Origin: Enterobacter cloacae complex sp. ECNIH7
GTDB taxonomy: Bacteria > Pseudomonadota > Gammaproteobacteria > Enterobacterales > Enterobacteriaceae
NCBI RefSeq assembly: GCF_002208095.1
Contig: NZ_CP017990.1
Location: forward strand, 3,038,001-3,102,000
Length of the DNA: 64,000 nucleotides
Direction of reading: 5' to 3'
Position 1 is the stretch's first letter. Every line of letters starts with the position of its first letter. The translations under genes and the position numbers were made by a program. The notes under the pieces were generated by a model that ran no database searches, was not told the origin of the DNA, and worked only from the letters and a program-made list of their open reading frames with translations. Positions 48,911 to 64,000 of this stretch are shown here, piece by piece.

Positions 48911-49812
48911 TCGCGCCAGACGACCCGGTTACGCCCGCTCTGTTTGGCCTGATACAGCCGGACGTCCGCCACGGACTGCAGCTGTTCAAACTCGTAGTTT
49001 CCCGCTTCATCCGCGCTGCTGACCCCCAGCGACGCGCTGACGCGCAGGGTCGTGCTCTTCTTCACCAGGATCTCCTTACTGTTGATGCGGCAGCGAATAC
49101 GGTCCGCGACGCTTCTCGCCTCCTCCAGGCCGATCCCCGGCAGGACGACGCAAAACTCTTCCCCGCCTACGCGCCCTGCCACATCATTCTTGCGTAACGC
49201 GCTGGCAATCAGCCCTGCCGTGTGGGAGAGCACCTTATCCCCGGCCTGATGGCCGAAGCGGTCGTTGATGTTTTTAAAACAGTCGAGATCGATCTGAATC
49301 ACAGAGAACGGCAGCGACTGCTGGCGACAGGTTTCCGCCAGCAATTTTGCCCGGTCGAACAGCGCGCCGCGATTATTCAGCCGCGTAAGCGGATCATGCC
49401 AGGCCTGCCACTGGAGCGAGTGCTGAAGCGTGTACATGTTACTTACCATGCGGCGGATCACCAGCCACGAGATCAATAGCATGGCGGTAAAGAGCGCCCA
49501 CATCAGCGCCAGCACGATGCTGATGCTGCCGAAGTCGTCCTGTACCCCTTCGTGCAGGGTGTGGATCCGCAGGACAACGCCGTCGAAGTGATCGAGCCGC
49601 TCCCAGCTCACAAAACGGCTTCCGAGGCGGATCCCGCCGCCGGTAGCGTGCTCAATCGCCTGCGCAATCTGCGCCGTTTCGCGTTCGTCAAAATGGTTAA
49701 CCACGTTTCCCGTACGGGCAGAGGTGGCAATCATATTGAGCCGGGTATCGTACAGCTGATACTCCCCTTCTGCCGCGCGCCAATCAAAACGCGACACATT
49801 GACAACTAACAT
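48907..49812 (-). pseudogene. dgcQ: Diguanylate cyclase DgcQ, N-terminus lost to prophage insertion
   Basis: Only the C-terminal 300 or so residues remain; E. coli DgcQ has 564. Similarity begins at [10 protein letters not shown] (residue 16 here, about 270 in E. coli). Kept: the last part of the periplasmic sensor, membrane helix at residues 97-119 and an intact GGDEF domain with GRVGGEEF (216-220) and [14 protein letters not shown]. Missing: first membrane segment and most of the periplasmic CHASE7 domain. The frame runs back to a stop at 49843-49845 inside prophage DNA. The ATG at 49812 is the first available start but lacks a promoter and first membrane anchor. The cyclase is therefore probably inactive or unregulated (inference). 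Confidence 0.8.
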
Positions 49813-49835
49813 TGGATCGCGTTTGTGATCGTGAT

Positions 49836-50390
49836 TTATATGTCAGATGCTGGGAATCGTTTGTACAGGGTTGAGATTCCGACGTCATAAATTAGGGCCA
49901 CCCTCTGACGAGTTTCACCAGCCGCTAACAATCTTCCAGCCTGCGCCCACTGTTCAGGTGTTAACTTAGGTCTTCGGCCTCCCACGCGCCCCTCAGCTCG
50001 CGCAGCAGCCAGACCTGCACGGGTACGTTCAACAATCAACTCACGTTCCATCTCGGCCAATGCTCCCATCACATGAAAGAAAAAGCGCCCCATTGGCGAT
50101 GAAGTATCTATGCTGTCAGTCAGGCTTTTAAAGTTGATGCCTCGCTCGCGTAGTTCTTCCACTAGCCCAACCAGATGACGCATGCTGCGCCCAAGGCGAT
50201 CAAGTTTCCAGACCACGAGTGTGTCACCTTCAGATAGCGTTCTGAGTACCCGTTTAAGCCCAGGTCTGTCTGAGGTTCTGCCGCTTATCTTGTCTTCAAA
50301 AATCAGTTCACATCCTGCACATTCCAGCGCATTACGCTGTAATGCCGTGTTCTGGTCATTAGTTGATACACGTACATAGCCAATAAGCAT
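49836..50390 (-). CDS. Serine invertase, Gin/Cin family
   Basis: 184 residues from ATG at 50390 ([20 protein letters not shown]). Catalytic Ser9 in RVST; dimer-interface and active-site stretch [40 protein letters not shown] long helix E; C-terminal HTH with [20 protein letters not shown] and [16 protein letters not shown]. The ending resembles P1 Cin (...FPASSFQS) more than Mu Gin. It should invert the 1.8-kb fibre cassette between sites at 50445 and 52251. A 12-residue upstream extension was rejected. Fis enhancer sites usually lie in the 5' part of such genes; not verified here. Confidence 0.95.
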
Positions 50391-50444
50391 GGTTAAACTC
50401 ACTTTAAATGGCGGGAATAATGCCATTTAAGCGATTAACGATCA

Positions 50445-50470
50445 TTATCCGAAACGTTGGTTTGAAAGAA
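50445..50470 (-). repeat. dix/gix-like crossover site, invertase-proximal
   Basis: 26 bp; on the minus strand TTCTTTCAAACC-AA-CGTTTCGGATAA read in three parts. Matches the Mu gix and P1 cix pattern (TTCC/TT...AAACC-NN-GGTTT...GGATAA). Central dinucleotide AA at 50457-50458, like cix and hix. Lies inside the silent fibre segment reading frame. Confidence 0.85.
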
Positions 50471-50815
50471 GCGGCAAAAAGAGAGGTTGGGACAGGTACA
50501 AATCAGATACCGGATATGGGCGCTTTTGCATCTGGCACAGGGTGGTTCAAATTACCAAGCGGGCACATTGTGCAGTTTGGTACATATTCAGGAAACACGA
50601 CTCGTTTTATCAGCGGTAACTTCCCTATACCGTTTCCGACTCAACCCTTGATTTCTATCAGCGTCATGTCTGATGCCGTCCAGTCAAATCCTTCTGGACC
50701 GATTATGCCTGTACTTTCTGTAAATTTTGAACATATCAGCAATTCGTCATGGCGTGTATCAACGAGTGACAATTCTCAGCAATACCGATTTAGTTATATT
50801 TCTATAGGACGTTAA
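50456..50815 (+). CDS. Silent alternative tail-fibre C-terminal segment (S'v)
   Basis: 119 codons plus stop that lack their own N-terminus in the present orientation. The frame reads VGLKEAAKREVGTGTNQIPD, the usual phage fibre linker, then a C-terminal receptor-binding-like part (FKLPSGHIVQFGTYSGNTTR) ending YISIGR. In-frame sequence upstream of 50456 (from 50408) is the unrelated backside of the invertase leader. Inversion would join it to the fibre N-terminus at 52264, giving a 221-residue protein. Confidence 0.88.
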   Translation, partial: VGLKEAAKREVGTGTNQIPDMGAFASGTGWFKLPSGHIVQFGTYSGNTTRFISGNFPIPFPTQPLISISVMSDAVQSNPSGPIMPVLSVNFEHISNSSWRVSTSDNSQQYRFSYISIGR

Positions 50816-50816
50816 C

Positions 50817-51242
50817 ATGCAAAAATATGTATTCAGTGCCAAGAAAAATGCTTTCTTTCCTGTAGAGCTGAAGTCGTCCTATCAAAAGGCAGGAGAGTGG
50901 CCAAACGATGGAATAGAAATAGAAGACTCTGTTGCAACTGAATTCATGCAGGAGCCACCCGAAGGTAAATACAGAAATGTAATAGCAGGAATGCCTGCAT
51001 GGGTAGATATTCCACCACCAACTCAGGAAGAACTTAGCGCTGTCGCTGAATTAAAAAAGGCCAACTTACGTATGCGGGCTGACTCAGAGATTAACTGGCG
51101 TCAGGATGCTGTTGATGCCGGAGTAGCGACGGAAGAAGAAACCGCCGCTTTGTCAGAATGGAAAAGATACAGGGTGTTACTGATGCGAGTCGATACCGAA
51201 AAACCCGTTTGGCCTACCACTCCGGGGGAAGAGTCCAGTTAA
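50817..51242 (+). CDS. Tail fibre assembly protein for the silent fibre (U')
   Basis: 141 residues, caudoviral tail fibre assembly (Tfa) family: QKYVFSAKKNAFFPVELKSS, MPAWVDIPPPTQEELSAVAE, and the helical end ALSEWKRYRVLLMRVDTEKP followed by VWPTTP, the common Tfa ending. It helps the cognate fibre to trimerise. Two bases after S'v and convergent with the active assembly gene, overlapping it by 29 bp. Expected to be silent in this orientation. Confidence 0.92.
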   Translation: MQKYVFSAKKNAFFPVELKSSYQKAGEWPNDGIEIEDSVATEFMQEPPEGKYRNVIAGMPAWVDIPPPTQEELSAVAELKKANLRMRADSEINWRQDAVDAGVATEEETAALSEWKRYRVLLMRVDTEKPVWPTTPGEESS

Positions 51243-51807
51243 TATCTGGCGCGGTGCTGGTATCAGTTGCCTCCACCGCGTCAATGTAGTCCAGAACAGA
51301 ATTTAGCCTCGCAGTTTCAGCAGTGGTTAATTTACGCCCTGCCTGTAATTTAAGCTGTATCATGCCGATTGATGCCATTGCTGAATCTATCAGAGATTGC
51401 TGTTGTTGTTTTGCTACTTCTTTATCTGCCGCGTGCTGGGCTTTGATATCCGTTATCCACTTTTCCCCGTCCCACTTATCGTAGGGGGTGGATGGCGCAA
51501 TATTAGTGTATCCATCATGAACAGAGCCAATGTAGTCCACGGTGATGGCGCTACCATCATCAGTAGACCAGACCGTCTCCCCCCTGTGGTCTTTTTGTCG
51601 CTTCCAGTCTTTTCCTGTAAATACCATAACCTCTCCTGCCACTTCATTCCCCGGAGCAATATTAGTAGAGTTACCAGGCATACTCACTCCGATATTAATG
51701 AATTCGTCAGACCAGCCTACATATTCCTTTGTCACAGGATGAAAGTAATAAACACGAATACTTCCGGCTTCAACAGCCAGCCCGTCCTTATCGAAAATGA
51801 CTGTCAT
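51214..51807 (-). CDS. Tail fibre assembly protein for the active fibre (U)
   Basis: 197 residues, Tfa family but different from U': MTVIFDKDGLAVEAGSIRVY, Q-rich helix KEVAKQQQQSLIDSAM, then a long helix (LTTAETARLNSVLDYIDAVE) and the ending DINWTLPPEW. The ATG shares one base with the stop of the fibre gene, so it is translationally coupled to it. Confidence 0.9.
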   Translation of the reverse strand: MTVIFDKDGLAVEAGSIRVYYFHPVTKEYVGWSDEFINIGVSMPGNSTNIAPGNEVAGEVMVFTGKDWKRQKDHRGETVWSTDDGSAITVDYIGSVHDGYTNIAPSTPYDKWDGEKWITDIKAQHAADKEVAKQQQQSLIDSAMASIGMIQLKLQAGRKLTTAETARLNSVLDYIDAVEATDTSTAPDINWTLPPEW

Positions 51808-52571
51808 TATTTAGCCCTTACTAAGAAATTAAATGCGATGTTACGTGGTCTTACGGTTACATGGTTAACACCATCACCAATAGCTGGGCCGGGATAAGGA
51901 AATCTGGAAAATCCAGGACTGTAATCGACTACACCATCATGATTACCTATTGCATGACCGGAGCCTACGTCATAGTTACCAGCATACTGTGTGAAAGATG
52001 TTGCTGCCTGAAAGCTGAGTAACCCCCTTCCGTTATCTACGCCCCTTCCATCATCCCAAATACGCAGGAACTCGCCTCGCACATCATTTAATTTCAGTCC
52101 TGGAATAATCCTTGCCAGTTTAGGGTATTCAGTCGCTGAGAAGGTTGCGCCATTCCATTTCAAAAAGACCATATCCGACCACTCATCCATAACCGTATTA
52201 GGCATTGCAGTCGACGGCCAGAAGAACGGAATTCCTATCGGTGGAGCGCCTGCTCCTAAACGAAGGTTTGAGAGAGCCGTCGCGATTGCCTCTGCGCCAT
52301 CATTTTTAATGTCGCCAAATGGATTGGAGCGACTCAGAAACAGTTTTTTGAGCGCAGTCAGAATCTGAGTATTGGTCATTTTGTCAGGCTTCAGATCTGC
52401 TGATATGAGAATATTAAGCAACTCACTTTGGATGATATTAAACCAGTCCGGGCCGGGATACGTCGGAGGAACGCCATTACCACCTTCAGTAAAGAAAAGC
52501 TCTGTCTCACTGGTAACAGGAGACGGTTGTGGCATAACCGGAACACCGGTCGAATTATCTACGTGATACAT
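51807..52571 (-). CDS. Tail fibre protein S, active version
   Basis: 254 residues. Constant part residues 1-103 (MYHVDNSTGVPVMPQPSPVT, GGNGVPPTYPGPDWFNIIQS) shared by both switch states, then a variable part after NLRLGAGAPPIGIPFFWPST. The variable part is a short collar-like tip domain (RGEFLRIWDDGRGVDNGRGL, ending VTVRPRNIAFNFLVRAK) as in many Mu/lambda side-tail-fibre tips. The crossover site lies at codons 99-108. Determines host receptor range (family knowledge). Confidence 0.93.
   Translation of the reverse strand: MYHVDNSTGVPVMPQPSPVTSETELFFTEGGNGVPPTYPGPDWFNIIQSELLNILISADLKPDKMTNTQILTALKKLFLSRSNPFGDIKNDGAEAIATALSNLRLGAGAPPIGIPFFWPSTAMPNTVMDEWSDMVFLKWNGATFSATEYPKLARIIPGLKLNDVRGEFLRIWDDGRGVDNGRGLLSFQAATSFTQYAGNYDVGSGHAIGNHDGVVDYSPGFSRFPYPGPAIGDGVNHVTVRPRNIAFNFLVRAK
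52251..52276 (+). repeat. dix/gix-like crossover site inside the fibre gene
   Basis: 26 bp on the plus strand: TGCTCCTAAACG-AA-GGTTTGAGAGAG in three parts; central AA at 52263-52264. Inverted relative to 50445-50470, as required for inversion rather than deletion. The distance between centres is 1806 bp. Confidence 0.82.
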
Positions 52572-53161
52572 CAGTTATCTCCTGAAGAATAAAAATAGTC
52601 GTATGCTGTGCCGCCGAGACGATATTTCGTCAGTACACACTCCAGTTCTTTGGCTCGTTCGCTCAGGAGCGGTGTCATGACGTTATCGATACAGGTAAAA
52701 CGTCCGCCGCTGATACCGATCACCTCAATCTGTAACGTCCAGCGGTAACGGGCTGAATAAAGGGGATACATGCAGCTACGCATGCAATGGTGAGGGAGAA
52801 TGACTGTAACCCGGATAGTAAATCCAAGCGCAGCAGCCACCGCTTCAATCTGCCACGGGGAAAGGCCACCTTTGCGGTGATACTTCTCCACAACAGCACG
52901 ACGTCGGTTATCAACCGTTCCGCTTAACTGCCCACACTCCGGCAATTCCAGGTATTTCTCCCATTCTTCCAGCAGCATAAATGTTGTTTCTGGCCGCATC
53001 TCCGGTAGCAGGTTTTCTGCATCAAATTCCGTCTGACTTAAACGCCTGGCTAACGCCCGTAAAAAACTGTTTAAATCACCATCCTCATCGCGTGACCACG
53101 CTTTGCCACGTGGCATGACCTGCCATAAAGCGCCCAGCCATTCATCTACACTGTGGGCCAT
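52571..53161 (-). CDS. Baseplate/tail protein, Mu gp48 (YmfQ, DUF2313) family
   Basis: 196 residues: HSVDEWLGALWQVMPRGKAW followed by DEDGDLNSFLRALARRLSQT and the family segment SPWQIEAVAAALGFTIRV, with a Cys-rich later part. Mu gp48-type proteins link the baseplate hub to the fibres. Its stop/ATG overlaps the fibre gene by one base and its start overlaps gp47 by 16 bases. Confidence 0.88.
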   Translation of the reverse strand: MAHSVDEWLGALWQVMPRGKAWSRDEDGDLNSFLRALARRLSQTEFDAENLLPEMRPETTFMLLEEWEKYLELPECGQLSGTVDNRRRAVVEKYHRKGGLSPWQIEAVAAALGFTIRVTVILPHHCMRSCMYPLYSARYRWTLQIEVIGISGGRFTCIDNVMTPLLSERAKELECVLTKYRLGGTAYDYFYSSGDN

Positions 53162-54222
53162 GTCAGCACTCCGATAGTGATAAGTTCATTCTGAGCGCAG
53201 GGAATGTCAGCGGTCAGATTCAGCGAGTAATCCGTCACGCCAGATGCGGTGCCGATAGCAGTACGAATCGCTGAAATGGGTAGCGTTTGTCCTGGTTGCA
53301 GCGTCTTCTGAAGCGTCAACAGGCGGGACTGAACAGCTTTACGCGTGGCAGGCGTATCCGGTGTTATGCCAATAATCATATTGACGGGACGTAACACCAG
53401 TTCCACGGGCCAGACTTCTATTCCTCCCGGTTTACCAACCCATACGCCAGTCGCCGGGTCGGTATGACGGAAAAGGTAATCTTCCATATTTTTCCGGTCC
53501 TGATATCCGGGGGTAATCACTGAACGATCGTCATAAACCCACGCCAGTCCGACTGTGCAAGGGCCATGCCAGGCATCGAATGCCCACGCCCGACTAACCC
53601 CCGCCATTTCTCGCGCCCAGATGACATAGTCATGCACAGCCCCACCAACGGGGGGATTGCGTTTACGGAATAAAAGCCGGTCAAGCAATTCAGGAACTGG
53701 CTCAATATCCGCACCACCGATGATGCCCCCCGTACCCGTTAAACCAATACTTTCCACGCCGGGAACGGGGGACAGCAGGGTCAGGCTTTCACCTTCCGGA
53801 AGGTTTCCTGACGCGCCGGCATCGCTGGCCTGAATGGTTACAGTCATGACCCCATCTACAGGAACGCCGGAAGTCGTCACGGCATAAACAATACCGGTAG
53901 CGGTTTGCATCTCCATATCTTCCGGCAGCGGTGTATTCCCTTTAAATACCGCCGGCCCCGTAGCAAACGTGGCCTGTTTTCTGATGACACCTTCGCTGGC
54001 CGCAGTCTCAATGATGGTTTCATCATCAGATTTAACAGACGGAATAATCTGGTCTTTAATCCAGCTCTGATGGTCGTATAAATCACGAACCTGATTGCTG
54101 AATGAGGTATTTAGAGCTTTCTCAACGCCTACTGGCGGAAGTTTTTGCAGACCAAGTTCAAAGGCAATATCTTTTTCGCCGTCAGTAATAAGCTTGCGCA
54201 GCGCGGGAACGTTATAAGGCAT
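53146..54222 (-). CDS. Baseplate J-like protein, Mu gp47 family
   Basis: 358 residues. Contractile baseplate wedge component equivalent to P2 gpJ and T4 gp6. Start PYNVPALRKLITDGEKDIAF; typical ATTSGVPVDGVMTVTIQASD-like region before GASGNLPEGESLTLLSPVPG, and NPPVGGAVHDYVIWAREMAG, a family hallmark. Overlaps gp46 by 11 bases. Confidence 0.92.
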   Translation of the reverse strand: MPYNVPALRKLITDGEKDIAFELGLQKLPPVGVEKALNTSFSNQVRDLYDHQSWIKDQIIPSVKSDDETIIETAASEGVIRKQATFATGPAVFKGNTPLPEDMEMQTATGIVYAVTTSGVPVDGVMTVTIQASDAGASGNLPEGESLTLLSPVPGVESIGLTGTGGIIGGADIEPVPELLDRLLFRKRNPPVGGAVHDYVIWAREMAGVSRAWAFDAWHGPCTVGLAWVYDDRSVITPGYQDRKNMEDYLFRHTDPATGVWVGKPGGIEVWPVELVLRPVNMIIGITPDTPATRKAVQSRLLTLQKTLQPGQTLPISAIRTAIGTASGVTDYSLNLTADIPCAQNELITIGVLTWPTV

Positions 54223-54664
54223 TAGCAGTGGACTCCCAGCGTTTACTTATTTCAATCCGGAGCGTCGTTTTATCCGGGCGGGTTAAAATGACAATAAAAT
54301 TAATTCGGTCATTGCCGCTTATAGTGGCTGTGACTGCTGCATTACGCGCATAACCAGACCGTAAAAGCGGTTGCATAGAAAGCAGCGCATAATCTTCCAC
54401 CCGCATTCTGACGGATTCCGTCAGCTTCTCGCGATCCAGCAACCAGAGTTTCGATCCCCACGGATAATCACTAAATGTGTCGCCGGGCCAGCCTCTCGGG
54501 TCCGATGAGTTATCAGGAATAATGTCATCAGTATCAGCACGGACGTCGGTGAAAAGACAAATCAGAACCAAAGTGACCAGTCCTTCATCACGCGATAAAC
54601 CATCATGGTTAATTGCCAGTTCACCTCTGGATAGCTGATTATTCCAGCTGATACCAATTGTCAT
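54212..54664 (-). CDS. Baseplate protein, Mu gp46 (GP46) family
   Basis: 150 residues: DEGLVTLVLICLFTDVRADT, GWPGDTFSDYPWGSKLWLLD, LTESVRMRVEDYALLSMQPL. Equivalent to T4 gp25/P2 gpW-type wedge protein. Overlaps gp45 by 4 bases. Confidence 0.92.
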   Translation of the reverse strand: MTIGISWNNQLSRGELAINHDGLSRDEGLVTLVLICLFTDVRADTDDIIPDNSSDPRGWPGDTFSDYPWGSKLWLLDREKLTESVRMRVEDYALLSMQPLLRSGYARNAAVTATISGNDRINFIVILTRPDKTTLRIEISKRWESTANAL

Positions 54665-55203
54665 TTCATCTCCGATGTTTTTTTGCCATCCCCGTCAATA
54701 TGGAAATGCTCAAGAACAGATTTACCGGCGACCTGAATATCCTTTGAAAATACAGATGGGCCGTTAACTTTTAATAATTTTGTATTTATCGCAAACAATT
54801 CGCGGGCATCGTAATTAACCGATTTCCCTTTAACTTCGATAAGACCACCTTTTTTCAGGGTGATATAAGACTGACCATCGCCGTGATATAACCTGACCTC
54901 TCCATCCTCCAGACCTTTTGGACGGCAGCGCTTGTCTTCTACAGCGATTGCCACCAGACCTTCCCGGCGTCCCCCCACAGCCAGAATGAGTGCTTCTGAA
55001 CCGACTGGCGGCACAGACGTCAGGCCGTAATTCTGGAAACGTTCAATATCATCATTGGTGGAATCCGCCAGTGACTGGATCTGGAGGTTCTGACGCCCGA
55101 GACTGTCTGTAACGATACGAACAACGGCCCTGTCAACGAGCAGCCGTAGCCGGCGTCCAATACCTTCAAGTGTGCGACCGATATTTGCCGGATTCAGTCC
55201 CAT
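54661..55203 (-). CDS. Baseplate spike protein, Mu gp45 family
   Basis: 180 residues. Mu gp45 forms the trimeric cell-puncturing spike. N-terminal LLVDRAVVRIVTDSLGRQNL, OB-like LTSVPPVGSEALILAVGGRR, then beta-helical repeats (GQSYITLKKGGLIEVKGKSV) and the ending VLEHFHIDGDGKKTSEMK whose HxD-type residues may bind metal. Overlaps gene P by 10 bases. Confidence 0.92.
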   Translation of the reverse strand: MGLNPANIGRTLEGIGRRLRLLVDRAVVRIVTDSLGRQNLQIQSLADSTNDDIERFQNYGLTSVPPVGSEALILAVGGRREGLVAIAVEDKRCRPKGLEDGEVRLYHGDGQSYITLKKGGLIEVKGKSVNYDARELFAINTKLLKVNGPSVFSKDIQVAGKSVLEHFHIDGDGKKTSEMK

Positions 55204-56288
55204 GTTGCCACCGTTTTTGCCTTTGATTTATTGCCTTTCTTGCCTGCTTTTTTCGTACTGGTTTCAGGCATGTCCATCGACTCAGGGGGAACCAGCGTCA
55301 GAACGCAGAGACGTCCGTTATCACCTTCAGTAAACGTGACGGTTTTAATCAGCCATGAGTCCTTCAGGTTCTGTATCGGATCATCAATATCAACGAGCCT
55401 GTTTTTCTGCCATAACGGACCTTCATCGCCATTCTCGCGCCATCCTGCCAGTGTAATTTCGGTGCTGTTGGCTTCGCCCATCATCCGCGCTTTGTACCAT
55501 TCACCGCGTGTACTTGCGCCGCCGACGGTCAGGCTGTCTTCATTGACCAGGATTTTCGGGCGGTAACGGTTGATATCACCGTCATCAACGATGGTCTGAC
55601 GTCCTCCAATCACTTTGACAGGCTGATCATCCCACGTACTCCCACCCGCACTGGAGGTGCCTTTCACGATGTACTGGCTGTTTCGTTCACGCCAGCTGAA
55701 CCGACCACGGGCTGCAAGAATATTGGTTCCGAATATCAGAGGAACGCCGGCACGTTTTGTTGATGCCCGTGTGATGACCAGATTACCCAGACCATCAGCA
55801 GTCAGCAGAACGCCGCGTTGTTTAGCCAGGCGGTCCAGCAGATCGAAGGCTGTCTCTCCCTGTTCAAGGACCACGCTGGCAAAGATTTCGCCAGTATCAG
55901 TTTCACTGATGACCCTAATTCCATAGGGTTTGCAGATTTCAGTTGCCAGTTGTTCCAGCCGAACACCTTTCCACTGGCCGGATTTATGCACCACGGAGCT
56001 GTCAACAAGATCCCCGGTTTTATCCCGCCCCATAACGCGAATACTCATGTTTTCTGCGTCATAGCTGGGAATGAAATCATCGATATACCCCGTCAGAACC
56101 GTATCTTTTCCCAGCCTGACGATGCAGGGCATGCCCTGCTTAATAACGCGCGGTGAAGCTTCTGACCATTGCGTGGTGACAGTCAGATCAAATTCCCCGG
56201 CAACAGCCTCCAGTGAGGAAGTGACAGACATCTCGGTCCATCCGTCCCACTGCTGTCCGTCGACCTCAAGTACAACCATTTCCATCAA
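55194..56288 (-). CDS. Baseplate hub protein, Mu P (gp44) family
   Basis: 364 residues, trimeric hub similar to T4 gp27/P2 gpD. Start VVLEVDGQQWDGWTEMSVTS; IRVMGRDKTGDLVDSSVVHK and the Lys-rich end STKKAGKKGNKSKAKTVA. ATG overlaps the preceding N gene by 4 bases. Confidence 0.92.
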   Translation of the reverse strand: MMEMVVLEVDGQQWDGWTEMSVTSSLEAVAGEFDLTVTTQWSEASPRVIKQGMPCIVRLGKDTVLTGYIDDFIPSYDAENMSIRVMGRDKTGDLVDSSVVHKSGQWKGVRLEQLATEICKPYGIRVISETDTGEIFASVVLEQGETAFDLLDRLAKQRGVLLTADGLGNLVITRASTKRAGVPLIFGTNILAARGRFSWRERNSQYIVKGTSSAGGSTWDDQPVKVIGGRQTIVDDGDINRYRPKILVNEDSLTVGGASTRGEWYKARMMGEANSTEITLAGWRENGDEGPLWQKNRLVDIDDPIQNLKDSWLIKTVTFTEGDNGRLCVLTLVPPESMDMPETSTKKAGKKGNKSKAKTVATWD

Positions 56289-57616
56289 TCTGTTACCTCG
56301 ACAGGTTTACCCGGAAGAATGAAGGCCGGGTCTTTCAATCGGTTCCTTGAGGCGATGGCGTCACGGTTCTCGGTATTACCGGTTTCACGCCATGCAATAA
56401 GGGATACCGGGGACGTTGTGGTCAGGATGACCGTTCGTGTCTGTGGTAGCTGAGCGCTCCTGACCCGTACGTCATTGACGACGGCAAAGCGCAGCTCGCG
56501 CAGGGCATGCCACAAATCCCGCTGACCGTTTTCTACGGCATACACAGCCTGTTCATTCAGTTGCTCAGCCAGCGTGTCACCCGCACTTATGGCTTCTTCA
56601 CTACTTCTGAACTCGGTGCTGGCAACGGTCTCTGCCTGTCCAGTTAGGCTGGCAACGACAATCAGCTGACGAAAATGAGTGATGTTGGCCTGCATGGCAT
56701 CGGTCAGTTCAGGGACAACGTCCGGAAGGCTGCTGGCAAAACCATACTTTCCGTCAGTCACTGAACCTGGTGTGACTGACATGTATTTGGGCAACTGGTG
56801 AAGTGCAGCGGCTGTCGCGCGGTCACTTGTATTTGTTGGCGAAGCCGGCGACGACCACGGCGAAGATGAAGAACCGGAAAACTGATCTCCCTGCCACCGG
56901 TTGCGGAGCTGATCATAAACCCGCATTGACCAGAGAGGTTCGGTCACGGTGTCGCGTACACCGCTGACAAGGTTCAGAACATCATTGATAAATCCGGCTG
57001 GTTTCGCGACGGCCAGCTCAATCAACCCACGAAAACGCCCTAAACGGTCAGTCCATTCAGTAATCGCGGAGGGCAACGTCAGCACACCCACCACCAGATT
57101 TTCCATGTCGTCCATCCACGTATCGGCCATCTCACCAAGACCATCAAGCAGGGCAAAGACATCACCGTTCGCAAGGGCTGCTTTAACCTTATCCGCCGCG
57201 CTGAGTACCGTCAGGCTGGTATTTTCTGCCGGCGCAGGAAACAGGCGTTCGCCCGCCTCAGAAACCTCAAAAGAGATGTAGGCAATGCCGCCTTCCTCAG
57301 TGCTCAGACGGTGAGTCACCTTGCCAATCTGAACCTTCTGAATGCCGAACCACGGATGGATAAGTTCACCGGGTCCCGGTGTGTTCAGTGCCCGGAGAAG
57401 TGCCTCCAGTTGGCTCTGGTAGTTCTTTCCAATCAGTTTGCCGTTGATTTGCTGTTGGGTCAGAACGGCACCGTTATCCTCGGTCCAGCCCACTTCTTTT
57501 TTGGGGTAAGCACGGGGAATTGCCCGACGGCCACTGGTGCCTTCGTTATCGACCAGATAGAAGGAGACGCCCCGGAACGAAGCATCGCGCAGGTCTTCCC
57601 ATCGGGTAGCAGCCAT
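56285..57616 (-). CDS. DNA circularization/tail protein, Mu N (gp43) family
   Basis: 443 residues. The N-terminal DNA_circ_N-type domain is at residues about 1-95 (TRWEDLRDASFRGVSFYLVD, KEVGWTEDNGAVLTQQQING), then a helical middle (VKAALANGDVFALLDGLGEM) and a C-terminal LysM-like ending (RDAIASRNRLKDPAFILPGK). In Mu, N joins the tail to the baseplate hub. One base overlap with the tape measure gene. Confidence 0.9.
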   Translation of the reverse strand: MAATRWEDLRDASFRGVSFYLVDNEGTSGRRAIPRAYPKKEVGWTEDNGAVLTQQQINGKLIGKNYQSQLEALLRALNTPGPGELIHPWFGIQKVQIGKVTHRLSTEEGGIAYISFEVSEAGERLFPAPAENTSLTVLSAADKVKAALANGDVFALLDGLGEMADTWMDDMENLVVGVLTLPSAITEWTDRLGRFRGLIELAVAKPAGFINDVLNLVSGVRDTVTEPLWSMRVYDQLRNRWQGDQFSGSSSSPWSSPASPTNTSDRATAAALHQLPKYMSVTPGSVTDGKYGFASSLPDVVPELTDAMQANITHFRQLIVVASLTGQAETVASTEFRSSEEAISAGDTLAEQLNEQAVYAVENGQRDLWHALRELRFAVVNDVRVRSAQLPQTRTVILTTTSPVSLIAWRETGNTENRDAIASRNRLKDPAFILPGKPVEVTD

Positions 57617-59547
57617 CAGCCTTGCTCCACGCTGGACACGCCAGCAGATGCACTAAGTTTGATACCCGGCTGGTTCATGGTGACGCTTTTAACACGGCCA
57701 CCGCCACCCTCAAGGATCACGCGGATTTCACCCTGCATTTTCTGTAGGGTTGTGGGTAATGCAGGTGGCTGAACAGGCTTATCAAACGCGTTTTTGTTTT
57801 CAATTGCGGCGTTGGTGCCACGCAGAAAATCAACGATGACACCAAACAAAGAATGGTCATTTGTTTCAGGGCGTGGCGTTTCTGCTTGGTGATTGTTTAA
57901 CGCAGGGATAAACGGCGTTGCCGGTGTCATTGATGCCCACGGGCGCGGGTCAATAATCTGTGACTCTGTAGCGTTTTTACTCCTTGGAGAGAACCAGCTT
58001 TTAATGTCATTCCAGCGGGTTGGTTTGTTGTTATTCTTCTGAACTTTTCGGATAAGTTCCTGCGTTTCTTCAGGCGAAGAGGGAAAGCTATCCAATAATG
58101 ACAATCCAAAGGAAAAAGCATTGCCGACATTGTTGCGGGTCAGATTTCGTCTTGTATTACGTGGGTCTGATGATGTTGAGGCAGAGTTGTCCCCCATGCC
58201 ACCTTCACCCATACCACCTTTGCCCATGTTCACGACATAAACGGGCATAACACCGGAACCAAAAACATCGGAGACACCTTTAGGGATGCCTTTGCCGCCA
58301 CTTTCCTGCTTAAGAAAATCCCATGCACCTTTGCCGATTTTAAAAGCTTTACGAGCGGCGATAAGGCCACCGACAGCAATACCTATGTTTTTACCAACCT
58401 CAAGCCAGTTCTGAGCCGTTTCTTTATCAACAGAATTCAGTGCGTCAGCTAAATCCTGAATAGGTTCAGCAAGTTGATTCTCAGCAAAACGCTGCCATTC
58501 ATTGTTGATGGACTGTATTGCGGAGTTAAAACCTTCAGCATTTCTCTGCGCTGCCTTTTGAGTTGATCCTAGCTCAACAGTACCGTATATCATCTCCTCC
58601 ATCATTCGAATATTTTCAGGTCGCAAAAGGGCTGTAATCCCTTGCATACCTGTTTGATCAAACACGTCCTGGAGTTTAATAGGATCTCTTTTTGCCCGTT
58701 TGATAATTTCCTGCATCAATTCAAACGGTAGCTTTAACTCTTTTGTCCCCTTTTTAAAAACATCAATTCCGTTTGACCTTAAAAAATCGATATTTTTTTT
58801 GTTTGATAGCGCCGCATACATGGCCTGAATACTGGTTGTAGTTTCCTCTGCACTTCCTTTGTTTTTTGCAAAAATCTGGAGAAATGCGCCCATTTGGGCG
58901 ATAGCAACCGGACCTTGATCTGCAATTGTTGAGAACAATTTAGGTGCCACTTTTGCTACATCAGCAACGCTTACGGAACCAACAGCAAACTGGGCATAAA
59001 GGTTGTCCAGAGTTTTGCTAACTTCGTCTGCACCGCGAATTCCCTTTTCCCAGAACTGTGCTAAAAGGCCGGCAGCGGTCTGACCATCAACACCAAAAGC
59101 CTGCATGAGTAACCCCATATTACGCAGGTTTTTTTGGGTAAATTCGTAATCACCCGTTTTACCTAATAGCTCACCCACACCCTGACCAAGAACAGAGGAT
59201 TCAATGCGAATATCAGCCATGTTAGAAACATCCCTGATTTGTGTTCGCAATTCATCCACTTCTTTTACGCTCAACTGGGCATCAGTTCCCATCCTGCGCA
59301 TTTGGGCATCAAAATCCGCAACTTGTTTGACGGTTAAACTGCTGCCTATACCCGCAATCATGGCGGTGTAGCGGCTTCCAAGCATATCCAGACCACGTCC
59401 GGCAGATTCAGACGCGGCCTTAACAACAGACATTGCTTTCTGGTTACGGCTGGCAAACTCGCTCATGTTAGCGCCGTACTGGCGGGCTTTGGCCGTCAGG
59501 TTCCCGGCAAGGTTAATCAGAATTTCAGTGCTTAGGCGGTTTGTCAT
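57616..59547 (-). CDS. Tail tape measure protein (Mu gp42 equivalent)
   Basis: 643 residues, TP901-type tape measure core: LSTEILINLAGNLTAKARQY, DFDAQMRRMGTDAQLSVKEV, FKKGTKELKLPFELMQEIIK. Residues about 20-400 are helical; the last 250 are linker-like. A Gly/Met-rich patch NMGKGGMGEGGMGDNSAS lies near residue 430. Sets tail length and is likely ejected into the host. Its ATG overlaps the end of the frameshift-product reading frame by 23 bases. Confidence 0.93.
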   Translation of the reverse strand: MTNRLSTEILINLAGNLTAKARQYGANMSEFASRNQKAMSVVKAASESAGRGLDMLGSRYTAMIAGIGSSLTVKQVADFDAQMRRMGTDAQLSVKEVDELRTQIRDVSNMADIRIESSVLGQGVGELLGKTGDYEFTQKNLRNMGLLMQAFGVDGQTAAGLLAQFWEKGIRGADEVSKTLDNLYAQFAVGSVSVADVAKVAPKLFSTIADQGPVAIAQMGAFLQIFAKNKGSAEETTTSIQAMYAALSNKKNIDFLRSNGIDVFKKGTKELKLPFELMQEIIKRAKRDPIKLQDVFDQTGMQGITALLRPENIRMMEEMIYGTVELGSTQKAAQRNAEGFNSAIQSINNEWQRFAENQLAEPIQDLADALNSVDKETAQNWLEVGKNIGIAVGGLIAARKAFKIGKGAWDFLKQESGGKGIPKGVSDVFGSGVMPVYVVNMGKGGMGEGGMGDNSASTSSDPRNTRRNLTRNNVGNAFSFGLSLLDSFPSSPEETQELIRKVQKNNNKPTRWNDIKSWFSPRSKNATESQIIDPRPWASMTPATPFIPALNNHQAETPRPETNDHSLFGVIVDFLRGTNAAIENKNAFDKPVQPPALPTTLQKMQGEIRVILEGGGGRVKSVTMNQPGIKLSASAGVSSVEQG

Positions 59548-59710
59548 ATTGCTTCCTCAGTTGCCTGACCTGAATAAGCAACTGCCGCAGGGGCAGTTGC
59601 TCAAGCCGGTTAACATCGAAACGCTGAGAGAGGTTAATCAGCAGTAGATTGAGCGCCGCTGCCATCGGCATCATGTCGCCCCCGTTCGGCAGTCTCCCCC
59701 AGCATGTCAT
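59525..59710 (-). CDS. Second frame of the tail assembly chaperone (gpE'-like), expressed by frameshifting
   Basis: Open frame overlapping the 3' end of the upstream chaperone gene; helical sequence MAAALNLLLINLSQRFDVNR and QLPLRQLLIQVRQLRKQYDK. It has no ribosome site of its own. Relative to the upstream gene the frame is -2 (equal to +1). At 59683-59679 the upstream frame reads CGG GGG with five consecutive G; a glycine tRNA on GGG can slip back two bases and keep full pairing, then read GGC GAC ATG. The fused protein would have 117 + 51 = 168 residues. Confidence 0.82.
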   Translation of the reverse strand: MTCWGRLPNGGDMMPMAAALNLLLINLSQRFDVNRLEQLPLRQLLIQVRQLRKQYDKPPKH

Positions 59711-60029
59711 CCATCGCCTGACCCTTTTCTGTCAGCAACTTCAAATCTTCCGGATGCAGGGCATAAATTTGATTCATGTCCAGCGGGCCGGGGATTTCTC
59801 CAATCTTCTTAATCTGCCGGCGCATCATCTCCAGCCCCATCATCACCTCAGAGCAGTACGCGACAGCCTTGCCGTGATCACCGATAACAACGCGCTCAGA
59901 GGCCAGTTGCGATTCGATAACATCCCGGGATGTCAGTTCGCGTAGCGTCACATCCTTGTGAAGCATTTCATCGACGGTGCCTTTGCCGGTACGCAGACCG
60001 TGTTTCAGAGTGAATGTCAGTTCAGCCAT
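59634..60029 (-). CDS. Tail assembly chaperone (Mu gp41 equivalent)
   Basis: 131 residues: AELTFTLKHGLRTGKGTVDE, VTLRELTSRDVIESQLASER, MMGLEMMRRQIKKIGEIPGP. Equivalent to lambda gpG and P2 gpE, which coat the tape measure during tail assembly. The last 14 residues (after ...ERG) are replaced by the E'-like part when ribosomes shift frame. Confidence 0.9.
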   Translation of the reverse strand: MAELTFTLKHGLRTGKGTVDEMLHKDVTLRELTSRDVIESQLASERVVIGDHGKAVAYCSEVMMGLEMMRRQIKKIGEIPGPLDMNQIYALHPEDLKLLTEKGQAMDDMLGETAERGRHDADGSGAQSTAD

Positions 60030-60032
60030 GTC

Positions 60033-60389
60033 TTACACCTTCACACACTTGACGCCGATGAAGTTGGCCGAAACCGTACCCGCGTCTTCGTCCAGTTCAG
60101 CCGGGTTATCGGTGGCTGCGCCGGTCATCATGTAGTTGAGGCCGTTGTCACCGTAGAACATGACGGTCACGTCCTCCCAGTTACTGATTTCAATCACATC
60201 AACATCACGATCCGCTGCAATGGTCAGTTTGATGGAGGGGGCAGCCATCTTGCGGGAATTCCCCCAGACCTTACCGCCGCCCATGTGTTGCTGGCGGGCA
60301 TAGCCACCCGGATTCAGGGTGGACTTGCCTTCAGTTTTGATTTCACGGCCATTAATACGAATCGCCGCCATACCCAGAATATTTGCCAT
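60033..60389 (-). CDS. Tail tube protein, Mu M (gp40) family
   Basis: 118 residues, start ANILGMAAIRINGREIKTEG; GGYARQQHMGGGKVWGNSRK and GLNYMMTGAATDNPAELDED are typical of Mu/SfV tube proteins. Polymerises inside the sheath. Nine bases after the sheath gene. Confidence 0.94.
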   Translation of the reverse strand: MANILGMAAIRINGREIKTEGKSTLNPGGYARQQHMGGGKVWGNSRKMAAPSIKLTIAADRDVDVIEISNWEDVTVMFYGDNGLNYMMTGAATDNPAELDEDAGTVSANFIGVKCVKV

Positions 60390-60398
60390 GCTGGTTCC

Positions 60399-61880
60399 TT
60401 AAAGTTTGAACTGGATGAGACCGGCCAGAACGCGCAACTGATTCACCAGATTCGGGTGGCAGATAAAGTTCAGACGGTTTGGGTCTTTGCTGTCGATGGT
60501 GACATCAAGCGTGTCTTTATAATCTTCGAAATCCTCCACCAGACCTGCCGGGATAAGCTCAGTCAGCGCAATATCCAGTAACTCAGCCCGACAGATTTTT
60601 GGCGTCATGACTGGCTGACCGGCATCGAGCAAATCAAGCACGTCATCACCTGCCAGCTTGTGGCGTGGGTAGCGACTGGTGAAACGGTTTTTGATGACAT
60701 AACGGATACGGCCAAGCGTTGCCGGCGACTGCACATCGAGGTATGAAATGTCCGTATCGCCATAGCGGTTTACGCGGTACATGGTGATTTCGCGCTCAAT
60801 ACAGACGTTATCTCCGGCATCAACAAAGTGCGTGGCGATACCGTCATGCAGCAGCAGGTTACGCTCTGGCATATCCCAGCGGATACCGCGAGTGGGGGGC
60901 TTGATGCCTGTCAGGATCAGAGTCTGGAGAGGACGGGCCGGATCTATGGCAAGCTGGTATGCCGCCGTTGCACCGTAGCTGGCGGCCCACATCCATGACG
61001 GTTCAGGTGCGATGTTGGTGCCGATACAGGAAATCAGCCAGTCATTGCGGGTATGTCCGAATGTTCCGCTCTGGGCATGTGTTCCGCGATAAGCAGACCA
61101 CAACAGCGCCTCCATCATCTTGAGCGGCCCCCAGCGTTCCAGCAGTTCGTCACGAATGGTGTTCAGGCTCTGGGCATCGAGGTACGGGAAGATGATATCC
61201 GTGTACCAGTCATCTCCCAGCGCCGCGACAACAGACTGAATATCCGGCGTCCCCGTACCACCCGAAAATGCGGTCAGTGTTGCACTGATGCCGGCAGGTG
61301 TTTTTTCTCCGGCGTAATAGTTCAGGCGCACATCACTGTCATTTCCCGTGACGCCTTTCCACTTCACGGTCAGCACTACCGTTGCAGCAGCTTCAGCTTT
61401 TGCTGTGGCAGTAACCTGAGTGGCAGGCTTTGCGGTAATTGCAGCGATGATATTGCCGGCAATGGTTGCCGCTTCATCACCGATGCTGACCCCGACCTGG
61501 ACAGATACGCCATTGATCATCAGTGCCAGCGTACCAGCCTGAGTGGCGGTGCCGAGCATCGTGACTGTGGCACTCGCCGCAGCACCCTGGTCAATATCTT
61601 CCAGTCCCATCGCATACATCTCGGTGTAGCTGTTGGCCTTGCGGACCATCTTTGCCATTTCACCCAGCATGGAGCCACGGCCATAGAGTTCATCAGCCAT
61701 GCTGTCGCCAGTAATACGGTTGAGCGTCAACGGTAAAGCAGTCGCGCTGGCGAGCTGCTGACCCACAACCAGAATTTTTCGGGACTGTGCCGGCGCGGCA
61801 CTCATCGCCATAGAGTTATCGATATCGATCCAGACCAGCGGGACACGAATATCATCAGGAATATTACCGATGGACATCAT
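60399..61880 (-). CDS. Contractile tail sheath protein, Mu L (gp39) family
   Basis: 493 residues: IGNIPDDIRVPLVWIDIDNS at the start, FPYLDAQSLNTIRDELLERW in the middle, and the strongly conserved end block (PATLGRIRYVIKNRFTSRYP, HKLAGDDVLDLLDAG). An Ala/Thr-rich inserted domain lies at about residues 100-200. Contracts around the tube at injection. Start overlaps gp38 by 4 bases. Confidence 0.95.
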   Translation of the reverse strand: MMSIGNIPDDIRVPLVWIDIDNSMAMSAAPAQSRKILVVGQQLASATALPLTLNRITGDSMADELYGRGSMLGEMAKMVRKANSYTEMYAMGLEDIDQGAAASATVTMLGTATQAGTLALMINGVSVQVGVSIGDEAATIAGNIIAAITAKPATQVTATAKAEAAATVVLTVKWKGVTGNDSDVRLNYYAGEKTPAGISATLTAFSGGTGTPDIQSVVAALGDDWYTDIIFPYLDAQSLNTIRDELLERWGPLKMMEALLWSAYRGTHAQSGTFGHTRNDWLISCIGTNIAPEPSWMWAASYGATAAYQLAIDPARPLQTLILTGIKPPTRGIRWDMPERNLLLHDGIATHFVDAGDNVCIEREITMYRVNRYGDTDISYLDVQSPATLGRIRYVIKNRFTSRYPRHKLAGDDVLDLLDAGQPVMTPKICRAELLDIALTELIPAGLVEDFEDYKDTLDVTIDSKDPNRLNFICHPNLVNQLRVLAGLIQFKL

Positions 61881-62065
61881 GCCTCCTTATCGGTTTTAGG
61901 TGTGCGGGACTTTGGTGGCTCAGTGATATTCACATCGCCTTCTTTTTCACGGCGCAGCCAGTACGCATTGACCGGCAGCGTCTCGCCATCAGCGGCAAGG
62001 TGACTGCCATCAGCCTTACGAACGAGCAGGCCCGCCCGTGATGGCTTAATCATTTTCTTTGTCAT
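61877..62065 (-). CDS. Small tail-associated protein, Mu gp38 (DUF2635) family
   Basis: 62 residues: MIKPSRAGLLVRKADGSHLA, ETLPVNAYWLRREKEGDVNI, then a basic tail. Position directly before the sheath gene is as in Mu and SfV-type phages. Overlaps gp37 by 20 bases. Confidence 0.87.
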   Translation of the reverse strand: MTKKMIKPSRAGLLVRKADGSHLAADGETLPVNAYWLRREKEGDVNITEPPKSRTPKTDKEA

Positions 62066-62669
62066 CAGTCTGTCCTTCTCTTACGTTTATGATTTGCGGC
62101 TCATCGCTTACCGGCTGTCCGTTCACCACAATGGTTGCCCCCAGTCGCAGGAATTCCGGCAACGTGGACAGGTCTATCTCATCATCAAGACGGAATTCCT
62201 GTTCCCATGTAACGGCCCACATGGTGATCCCGAGATTGTCCAGGCCACCCGACCAGAGGTTTTCAGCGGCGATGTTCTCAGCCATACGCTCAGCCTTCAT
62301 GCCCGCAGCCGCTTCACGACAACTGATACGACGGGCAAGGCGTCCGGCAATAACCTCACAGCGGGCATCGCGCGGGTATCCCCAGAAATCAGCCATCATG
62401 ATGTAGGCCGCCCAGGTCACAAGGCCGGTCATGCCGCGACGGTTCTGGATATTCCTGACCCGTAAGGCCGCAATACGGATACTGCCGCCGCGCCCGGACA
62501 TATAGCTTTTGACCTGATCCGGGGTGTTAAACTGACCGATGTGACGCTCCACCTTTTCAACCCGGTCAGGTTGCTTTTCACCCTCCAGTTCAGCTTTCAG
62601 CCAGTTAACAATATTCTCGGCGGCACTGACCGTACTGCCCAGGGTGACGAACGCCGGACGTTCATTCAT
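62046..62669 (-). CDS. Head-tail/tail terminator protein, Mu K (gp37, DUF1834) family
   Basis: 207 residues: ERPAFVTLGSTVSAAENIVN, RGGSIRIAALRVRNIQNRRG, WGYPRDARCEVIAGRLARRI and WEQEFRLDDEIDLSTLPEFL. Assigned from these family blocks and from its place before gp38 and the sheath gene. Overlaps the gpG-like gene by 4 bases. Confidence 0.87.
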   Translation of the reverse strand: MNERPAFVTLGSTVSAAENIVNWLKAELEGEKQPDRVEKVERHIGQFNTPDQVKSYMSGRGGSIRIAALRVRNIQNRRGMTGLVTWAAYIMMADFWGYPRDARCEVIAGRLARRISCREAAAGMKAERMAENIAAENLWSGGLDNLGITMWAVTWEQEFRLDDEIDLSTLPEFLRLGATIVVNGQPVSDEPQIINVREGQTDDKEND

Positions 62670-63208
62670 TGCAGAACCTCATTCCAGAAATCCCCGATGA
62701 CGTGCAGCAGTTCCTGACTGTTCCCGGAGGACAGGCCGAGGAACTCACGCTGCGGGATGTTCAACATACGTTTATGCGCCCCCACGGTTTGCCATACCCC
62801 GTGTTTAAGCGCCCGACCAAATGCCTGTGAGATGAGTCGCTTATGGGCTGACACAGACACCGAGCCGGAAAACCCCTCGTTGTGCGTCCGGCCATAATCA
62901 AGTGGCGTACCCACTCGAACGACAGATCCGCTGACCAAATACTGGATACTGTCGAGCAGATCGCCGTTGCCCTGTAACAGACTCTGGTTGCTGTGTCGGG
63001 TTTTCGCGTAGCTGTCAGACCAGTCCTGCCACTTCTCACCGGCAGGGCTGGATTTCTCGCTGGAGATGCGCCGGCGGGTCTGTGACTCCACCACAGCGCC
63101 AATACTCTCCAGTAGCTCCTGTTGCAGCGACTGGTCAGCCAGTCGCTCAATCGCACGGCGAATGTCCTGAAACTTCTGGTCTCCTCTGACCTCGACAGTA
63201 ATTCCCAT
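62666..63208 (-). CDS. Phage virion morphogenesis protein, Mu G (gp31)-like
   Basis: 180 residues from ATG 63208, fused to the stop of the upstream gene as TGATG. Start GITVEVRGDQKFQDIRRAIE; SSEKSPAGEKWQDWSDSYAK and NQSLLQGNGDLLDSIQYLVS are typical of the virion morphogenesis family that contains Mu gpG. In Mu this gene lies upstream of the protease/scaffold genes; here it lies between gp36 and gp37, an arrangement seen in other Mu-like phages. Confidence 0.85.
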   Translation of the reverse strand: MGITVEVRGDQKFQDIRRAIERLADQSLQQELLESIGAVVESQTRRRISSEKSSPAGEKWQDWSDSYAKTRHSNQSLLQGNGDLLDSIQYLVSGSVVRVGTPLDYGRTHNEGFSGSVSVSAHKRLISQAFGRALKHGVWQTVGAHKRMLNIPQREFLGLSSGNSQELLHVIGDFWNEVLQ

Positions 63209-63648
63209 CACAGCACCCCTTTCAGGTTGTTACGGGTGAACAGACGACGGTTTTCACTGACGATGATCAGCTTTCCGGTGTCGGTCTCAGGGACCGGGGT
63301 GTCAGACGGCACACCGAGGTCACGGGTGCCGTTGGCGATTTCACGCAGGGTGCGGAGGGCTTCGTCGTAACGCTTCTGGATTTCATCGGTGATCTGATGG
63401 TCCCGTTCAGACAGCCAGTAGAACGCGATGGAAACTGCCGCCCGGCGCAACGGACTCGGCAGGCTCGGAAGGTTCAGCGGCAACTGATAACGCTTTGCCA
63501 GAAAGGAATTAATTTCTGCATCAGTGTCATCAATCGCACGCTGGATCTTTTCTTCATCGAGCTGCTGCGTCTCTTTGTTGATTGCCATGTTCCAGACGCG
63601 GTCACCATCGGTTGCCAGCAGGTCCTCACGCGTTACGTAGATGCCCAT
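63208..63648 (-). CDS. Head-tail connector protein, Mu J (gp36, DUF1320) family
   Basis: 146 residues: GIYVTREDLLATDGDRVWNM, IDDTDAEINSFLAKRYQLPL, PLRRAAVSIAFYWLSERDHQ, ITDEIQKRYDEALRTLREIA. Probable adaptor between head and tail. Start shares a base with the stop of the gene upstream. Confidence 0.9.
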   Translation of the reverse strand: MGIYVTREDLLATDGDRVWNMAINKETQQLDEEKIQRAIDDTDAEINSFLAKRYQLPLNLPSLPSPLRRAAVSIAFYWLSERDHQITDEIQKRYDEALRTLREIANGTRDLGVPSDTPVPETDTGKLIIVSENRRLFTRNNLKGVL

Positions 63649-64000
63649 TATTTGCTCTCCACGTCGGCTTCAGTCCCGGCAACGGTCGCCAGTTCGGTCA
63701 CAATCAGCATCTTTTCCGCTTTCAAACGCAGGGCTGTGTCGGTACTGATCACGCACCCCTGCAGCGGCTTACCACCGGCATCTTCCAGAATCTGTTCATC
63801 CGGGTTATCGCTGACAAACACATGCACCGTATCGTGCGGCCAGAATCGGCCAGCCCGGTGAAAACCGTTTTCCGGAATGGCGCGGACCTCCAGCACCACG
63901 ACATTTTCAGCAATGCGAACAGCCTCTGAATGGTCATGTGTCAGCGTCTCCTGCCAGAGATGTTTTCTCAGGTCGTCACCCGTGTTCTCACCCGGTATGG
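63648..64000 (-). CDS. Mu gp35-like (HI1506-related) protein, partial
   Basis: The reading frame is open from the window edge to the stop at 63648, giving at least 117 residues: GDDLRKHLWQETLTHDHSEA then VRIAENVVVLEVRAIPENGF, HRAGRFWPHDTVHVFVSDNP, ending TEADVESK. A GTG inside (63899) is unlikely to be the real start because coding-like sequence continues upstream of it. Position before gp36 fits Mu gp35, a small head-associated protein. Confidence 0.75.
   Translation of the reverse strand, partial: IPGENTGDDLRKHLWQETLTHDHSEAVRIAENVVVLEVRAIPENGFHRAGRFWPHDTVHVFVSDNPDEQILEDAGGKPLQGCVISTDTALRLKAEKMLIVTELATVAGTEADVESK

What the first reader, a model, noticed from the sequence alone, without database searches (positions are those of the whole stretch)
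50445..52276. Invertible tail-fibre cassette whose flip is in frame and restores a canonical fibre motif
Two 26-bp dix-like sites in opposite orientation (50445-50470 and 52251-52276), both with central AA, flank U, U' and the two fibre ends, next to a Cin/Gin-type invertase. Crossover at 52264/50457 falls on the second codon position in both fibre frames, so the flip is in frame. It changes VGLKEAAKR to NLGLKEAAKR joined to ...ALS, which is the usual phage fibre linker. The alternative fibre would have 221 residues against 254 now, each with its own assembly protein. The segment (about 1.8 kb) is smaller than the 3-kb Mu G segment.
Basis: partly seen in the sequence, partly recalled or inferred. 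Interest (0 to 1): 0.75.

Follow-up and report, generated by a model that had tools for sequence, protein, structure and literature searches.

The report
Invertible tail-fibre switch in Mu-like prophage
A bacterial virus lying dormant in this genome carries a well-known kind of genetic flip switch that swaps the tip of its host-recognition fibre; the switch looks intact, but switches of this kind have long been known.

Summary
Two 26-bp inversion sites (50445-50470, 52251-52276) lie in opposite orientation and are the two best matches in the window to a profile built from sites of relatives (28.7 and 32.1 bits; best in 100 simulated windows 17.3). An intact Gin/Pin-type serine invertase (49836-50390, minus) starts 54 bp from site 1. 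Both fibre frames cross the sites at codon positions 2-3, so either orientation reads through.

Relatives show real flips: two pairs of viral contigs carry near-identical cassettes in opposite orientation between colinear flanks. Relatives of both fibre tips occur in joined and in silent position. The same cassette (97.5%) sits in an E. coli prophage annotated with P2-type tail genes, similarity ending at both sites.

It is a new member of a known kind: layout and size of the e14 P segment (1797 bp; 1806 here), in a 32-kb Mu-like prophage. 'Restores' overstates it: the present fibre is already complete. Inversion in this isolate was not observed; no reads were available. A second cassette and a lone site elsewhere in the chromosome make cross-talk between prophages possible.

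The parts
49836..50390 (-). Gin/Pin-type serine DNA invertase, 184 aa (the mechanical ORF to 50426 adds 12 residues before the Met where the Gin match starts)
   Evidence: Resolvase + HTH_7; PHROG 'DNA invertase' E 3.4e-96; 143/182 identical to Gin; R7, S9, R65 present (catalytic roles recalled); 87% identical over 183 aa to a protein annotated PinE in L122
50301..50390 (-). possible recombinational-enhancer stretch overlapping codons 1-30 of the invertase gene
   Evidence: fourfold-site diversity 0.364 (17 sites) against 0.552 overall in 86 distinct invertase genes; 0 of 20,000 permutations as low. Region chosen. A Fis motif scan did not place sites here
50445..50470 (+). inversion site 1 (core TT on +, 50457-50458)
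   Evidence: 28.7 bits against the relatives' profile; 54 bp before the invertase ATG; the same offset (index 55 or 56) in 56 of 68 two-site loci, window included
50408..50815 (+). mechanical ORF holding silent fibre tip A (the part after the crossover starts at 50458), gp53-like C-terminal domain
   Evidence: PF21882 E 2.1e-9; joined natural forms P0006, P0009, P0010 at 91-96%
50817..51242 (+). tail-fibre assembly protein for tip A
   Evidence: Caudo_TAP PF02413 E 4.4e-31; 55% identical to the assembly protein in the same place of an E. coli pinE locus, L122
51214..51807 (-). tail-fibre assembly protein for tip B
   Evidence: Caudo_TAP PF02413 E 6.1e-23; overlaps the other assembly gene tail to tail by 29 nt
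51807..52571 (-). active tail fibre, 254 aa: constant N-part (to codon 103, where the crossover falls) plus tip B
   Evidence: PHROG tail-fibre families, best E 1.5e-47; no Pfam match; tip B behind a short silent-type leader in P0139 and P0142
52251..52276 (-). inversion site 2 (core AA on +, 52263-52264), inside the fibre gene
   Evidence: 32.1 bits, top score in the window
50458..52263 (.). invertible segment, 1806 bp between crossover points
   Evidence: near-identical cassettes inverted between colinear flanks in relatives
49771..64000 (.). the part inside the window of a 32,056-bp Mu-like prophage; its other end is at C1:3119826 of the own genome
   Evidence: 5-bp repeat CCTTC at both ends with TG...CA termini, chosen among 15 shared-5-mer rows for those termini; transposase and DNA transposition protein in L118

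Best explanation
This is a two-state tail-fibre switch of a Mu-like transposable prophage. The invertase binds the two 26-bp sites, cuts at the central dinucleotide, probably helped by a Fis-bound enhancer near the start of its own gene, and inverts the 1.8-kb segment. The constant fibre N-part, downstream of the gp48 gene on the minus strand, then ends either in tip B with its assembly protein (present state) or in tip A with its own. Phage progeny would carry one of two receptor-binding tips. Shown: sites, frames, open genes, inverted relatives, and relatives of both tips in both positions. Inferred: that inversion happens in this isolate, that an enhancer is used, and that the tips differ in host specificity.
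For: Both sites top-ranked against the relatives' profile and above all 100 simulated windows. Invertase open and 143/182 identical to Gin. In-frame crossover in both genes. L085/L089 and L080/L086: cassettes of 1889 bp, 100% and 99.9% identical, inverted, with colinear flanks of 82 + 242 bp (100%) and 82 + 456 bp (99.8-100%), sites included. Of 23 cassette pairs with >=90% identity and >=90% coverage among 68 two-site loci, 12 are in opposite and 11 in the same orientation. Tip A relatives (>=79.7% aa): 25 beside the invertase (silent), 13 active, 11 without an invertase held, 1 odd, of 50 matches in 48 loci. Tip B relatives: 29 active, 22 silent, 29 undecided, of 80 loci. The leader MPARVQICIFLNV is followed by tip A in L123, whose contig also encodes tip B at 100% in active position, and by tip B (99%) in P0139: the likeliest reading is one cassette in two states.
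Against: No read or PCR evidence for this isolate. The two closest copies of the whole cassette, L010 (97.5%) and L123 (91.8% over 2437 bp with the invertase), have the window's orientation. P0139 was seen as a protein only; whether tip A is its partner was not seen, so a half-cassette swap could also explain it. Tip B loci are 51-68% identical except L188; they are classed by invertase position alone, and one called active (L250) has a stop just before the tip. The sites differ at 10 of 26 positions. Fis scan: two weak pairs, 46 and 50 bp apart, outside the conserved stretch and without a control.
Confidence: 0.9

Rival explanations
1. A fossil switch: the cassette once inverted but is now locked, so tip A is not used.
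For: The sites match at only 16 of 26 positions; the two nearest whole-cassette copies share the window's orientation. For SfMu the authors suggest that a base change in one repeat may reduce or abolish inversion (PMC4406740, passages seen).
Against: Invertase, both assembly genes and the active fibre are open, and the silent tip is open to its stop. Both sites score above all simulated windows, and the silent tip matches natural joined tips at 91-96% (P0006, P0009, P0010).
Confidence: 0.1
2. Inversion is driven mainly in trans by the second invertase elsewhere in the chromosome (compatible with the main reading except for the source of the enzyme).
For: The same genome holds a second two-site cassette with an open, 81% identical invertase (L121). 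Trans action is reported for PinQ on e14 and, as cited there, for Fin and PinE (PMC12529663, passages seen).
Against: The window's own invertase is open and at the usual distance from site 1; there are no expression data.
Confidence: 0.1
3. The segment is mainly a transfer module for swapping fibre tips between phages, and switching within a cell is secondary (compatible with the main mechanism, rival as to its role).
For: 97.5% identity to a cassette in a prophage annotated with P2-type tail genes, similarity ending at both sites. Five relatives with the window's backbone (L009, L011, L012, L013, L038) carry other cassettes, with no match or partial matches of 67-76%.
Against: The conserved site offset and the natural flips point to use of the switch itself.
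Confidence: 0.15

Closest known systems
e14 P segment / PinE of E. coli K-12
   Same: Two convergent fibre-end and assembly-gene pairs beside the invertase; segment 1797 bp (PMC12529663, passages) against 1806 bp. In a pinE locus of an E. coli isolate (L122, not K-12 itself) the invertase is 87% and the silent tip 81% identical
   Different: e14 is a defective prophage, called lambdoid in a title cited by PMC4272514; here the backbone is Mu-like with a 5-bp duplication. The L122 cassette is broken by IS1, so tip B could not be compared
Mu G segment / Gin
   Same: Mu-type transposable phage; invertase at the right end, 143/182 identical to Gin; alternative fibre ends and assembly genes
   Different: 1.8 kb instead of 3 kb; only 65 bp between invertase and prophage end, where Mu has com and mom (recalled)
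P1 C segment / Cin, and inversion cassettes of P2-like prophages
   Same: Din-family invertase swapping fibre ends; the nearest whole cassette is in a prophage with P2-type tail annotation (L010); inversion in P2-like prophages is reported (PMC4272514, passages)
   Different: different backbone; the C segment is 4.2 kb (PMC12529663)

Membership tests
Din (Hin/Gin/Cin/Pin) inversion systems | small serine recombinase of about 190 aa with a nucleophilic Ser near the N-terminus and a C-terminal HTH | tested here: met
   184 aa; S9 in register with the Ser of Gin 4m6f and gamma-delta resolvase; HTH_7 present; catalytic role recalled
Din (Hin/Gin/Cin/Pin) inversion systems | two 26-bp sites of partial dyad symmetry with a 2-bp core, in inverted orientation | tested here: met
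   7 of 13 half positions self-complementary in each site; cores TT and AA; top two scores in the window
Din (Hin/Gin/Cin/Pin) inversion systems | Fis-bound recombinational enhancer in cis, usually near the 5' end of the invertase gene (recalled) | tested here: inconclusive
   reduced synonymous diversity in codons 1-30; the Fis motif scan gave only two weak pairs, outside that stretch, without a control
Din (Hin/Gin/Cin/Pin) inversion systems | inversion occurs in cells | not testable with these tools
   no reads; inverted relatives only
Phage tail-fibre inversion cassette (Mu G / e14 P type) | segment holds two convergent pairs of fibre end and assembly protein, constant fibre part outside, crossover in frame | tested here: met
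Phage tail-fibre inversion cassette (Mu G / e14 P type) | inversion changes adsorption specificity | not testable with these tools
   no phenotype data
Mu-like transposable phage | Mu-type transposase and transposition protein, TG...CA ends, 5-bp target duplication | tested here: met

The most novel reading that the evidence does not exclude
The chromosome holds three site-bearing fibre loci in separate phage-like regions: the window's cassette, a second two-site cassette (L121) with an 81% identical open invertase, and a lone site in the linker of a fibre gene (L120) with no invertase match near it. The cores are AA or TT in all of them. The invertases may act across prophages, exchanging fibre tips between phages of different kinds in one cell and rearranging the host chromosome. 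The cassette shared with a prophage of P2-type tail annotation, with similarity ending at both sites, would be a footprint of such traffic.
Probability: 0.25. Interest if true: 0.5.

Novelty: new member of a known kind. Interest (0 to 1): 0.22.

Why it matters
It is a clean extra example of fibre-tip switching, with natural flipped relatives and a cassette shared between phages of different tail types that ends at the recombination sites. A genome with two cassettes and a lone site is a convenient place to test whether phage invertases act across prophages.

Tried and rejected
Considered and rejected: a chance pair of sites; a dead invertase (open, expected residues in place); a premature stop in the second invertase of the genome, suggested, which came from the 12 extra residues in my query; a categorically new system (precedents).

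Weak or without result: the Fis motif scan. Megablast against phages matched only the invertase, in 3 records; the distant search with the cassette found 60 phage records, 5 of them covering at least 80% of it at about 70% identity, whose orientation I did not follow up. Among 5426 E. coli genomes, 1 (EcPF16) covers at least 80% of either half and none covers 80% of the 3.4-kb query. The 60 relatives and the 392 family genomes gave no match spanning the cassette besides the own genome. The structure, promoter and RNA tools were not used. Paper searches: on transfer between Mu- and P2-type phages, listed 6 papers, of which I saw the listing only. I recall older papers on horizontal transfer of fibre genes but saw none. 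PMC12529663, PMC4272514 and PMC4406740 were seen in passages only.

Biases: the first site search in relatives used a matrix from the two window sites; the profile was trained without the window, but on sites found that way. Of 98 loci scanned, 30 lacked a site pair at the 14-bit cut: 23 have under 2,100 bases held upstream of the invertase, 7 have more than 3,100. The orientation pairs are not independent. In one search I used 50 of the 65 loci (the 15 weakest left out); two of the 50 (L171, L172) gave no row after the length filter. L123, called 'joined' there by script, I count as silent because its invertase lies 69 nt away on the other strand; L164, an 'edge' row, I count as active; several invertases in that table are only about 54% identical.

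Full report
What is there. The region is the right end of a Mu-like prophage. A host GGDEF gene (GGDEF domain; probably dgcQ, name recalled) is split. The pentamer CCTTC stands at 49766-49770 and, outside the window, at C1:3119827-3119831; the element between runs from TG to CA, 32,056 bp. One search lists 15 rows of shared 5-mers; I chose this one for the TG...CA termini, and by my reading of its letters one copy of the pentamer lets the host frame run on. A transposase, a DNA transposition protein and a repressor-like protein lie at the far end. From the prophage end inward come the invertase (49836-50390, -), site 1, silent tip A (+), its assembly gene (+), the second assembly gene (-), and the active fibre with tip B (-), then Gp48- and baseplate J-family genes.

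Sites. The two 26-mers share 16 of 26 positions, each has 7 of 13 self-complementary half positions, and the cores are TT and AA on +. A symmetric profile from 79 distinct sites of relatives, window excluded, gave 32.1 and 28.7 bits; the next window hit had 10.6 and the best of 100 first-order Markov windows 17.3. No further site above 9 bits was found in the following 40 kb (L118, L119). In 56 of 68 two-site loci (window included) the first site lies at index 55 or 56 from the invertase start; cores are TT (62) or TC (6) at the first site and AA (59), GA (6) or TT (3) at the second.

Frame and tips. The core falls on codon positions 2-3 in both genes, so exchange keeps the frame. I did not build the inverted gene. 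P0006, P0009 and P0010 (217-218 aa; 91-96% over 90% of the query or slightly less) carry tip A behind a fibre N-part, reading ...NLGLKEAAKREVGTG. P0139 and P0142 (164 aa) carry tip B (98-99%) behind a short leader ending ...IFLNV. The leader of P0139 is also the one before tip A in L123, where an invertase lies 69 nt away on the other strand and the same contig encodes tip B at 100% in active position. The likeliest reading is one cassette in two states; but P0139 was seen as a protein only and its partner tip is unknown.

Natural inversion in relatives. L085/L089 and L080/L086 have 1889-bp cassettes, 100% and 99.9% identical, in opposite orientation, with colinear flanks matching over 82 + 242 bp and 82 + 456 bp, sites included. 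L081/L088 show the same at 94%, with 95% flanks over 85 and 83 bp. L012/L113 have a 96% cassette inverted, but share hardly more flank than the sites (54 and 51 bp). Of 23 pairs at >=90% identity and coverage, 12 are opposite and 11 the same. Tip A relatives stand beside the invertase 25 times and in active position 13 times; 11 had no invertase held and 1 was odd, of 50 matches in 48 loci. Tip B relatives stand active 29 times and silent 22 times, with 29 of 80 undecided; all but L188 (100%) are 51-68% identical.

Traffic. The cassette of E. coli EcPF16 (L010) matches at 97.5% over 1818 bp; within the stretch upstream of the invertases that one search compared there is no other match, and the match begins and ends inside the two sites. 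The invertases themselves match at 67% over 420 bp. The prophage there is annotated with GPW/gp25, tail protein I and late control D genes. L016 shares tip A and part of its assembly gene (97.8% over 598 bp), L014 the same part at 91.7% over 579 bp, with other second halves. Five relatives of the window's backbone (invertase 96%, fibre N-part 87%, gp48 94-95% in DNA) carry other cassettes. So the cassette seems to travel as a unit or in halves.

Invertase and enhancer. The invertase is open and 143/182 identical to Gin. In 86 distinct invertase genes the 17 fourfold sites of codons 1-30 are less diverse (0.364) than all sites (0.552); 0 of 20,000 permutations were as low, and no other run of 17 sites was lower. 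The region was chosen after seeing the profile, and selection on translation initiation is not excluded. The Fis scan gave two weak pairs (50244/50290 and 50194/50244), outside that stretch and without a control.

Comparison. PMC12529663 (passages) gives 1797 bp for the e14 P segment, 3 kb for Mu G and 4.2 kb for P1 C, reports P segment inversion in 33% of 562 E. coli genome sequences, and trans action by PinQ. PMC4272514 (passages) reports coexisting orientations for e14 and, in EPEC, for loci in a Mu prophage and in P2-like prophages. The present case falls within that range. What is special is local: a second two-site cassette with an open invertase (L121; P2-like by my reading of its genes, not tested) and a lone site in another fibre gene (L120).

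Verdict. Inversion in this isolate remains to be shown.

Noticed in passing
window 49766-49770 and C1:3119827-3119831: Mu-like prophage ends with a 5-bp repeat CCTTC, splitting a GGDEF gene (probably dgcQ, name recalled); the first 14 codons of the mechanical ORF 48907-49812 are prophage DNA.
   Followed up: yes
window 51214-51242: The two assembly genes overlap tail to tail by 29 nt; the same overlap is annotated in 9 of 9 E. coli relatives fetched (L009-L016, L122), but the second cassette of the own genome (L121) shows no such overlap in its ORFs.
   Followed up: partly
L121 6506-8809 (own genome, C1 4488505-4490808): Second two-site cassette with an open invertase, 81% identical to the window's; sites 31.2 and 38.7 bits.
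   Followed up: partly
L120 4520-4545 (own genome, C1 3364519-3364544): Lone 32.2-bit inversion site in a fibre gene with a tip resembling tip B; none of the 15 invertase matches lies near it.
   Followed up: no
L047 and two loci not named in the output: Three of 68 two-site loci have more than two sites at the 14-bit cut (L047 has four), suggesting shufflon-like switching.
   Followed up: no
L009 5823-6791; P0121 and other hits: Fibre proteins of this family are named 'carbohydrate kinase' or 'integrase' in public records, probably misnamed.
   Followed up: no
L015 1121-3498: In E. coli ECONIH4 an IS66 element sits among the assembly genes of the cassette of a relative of the window's phage.
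   Followed up: no
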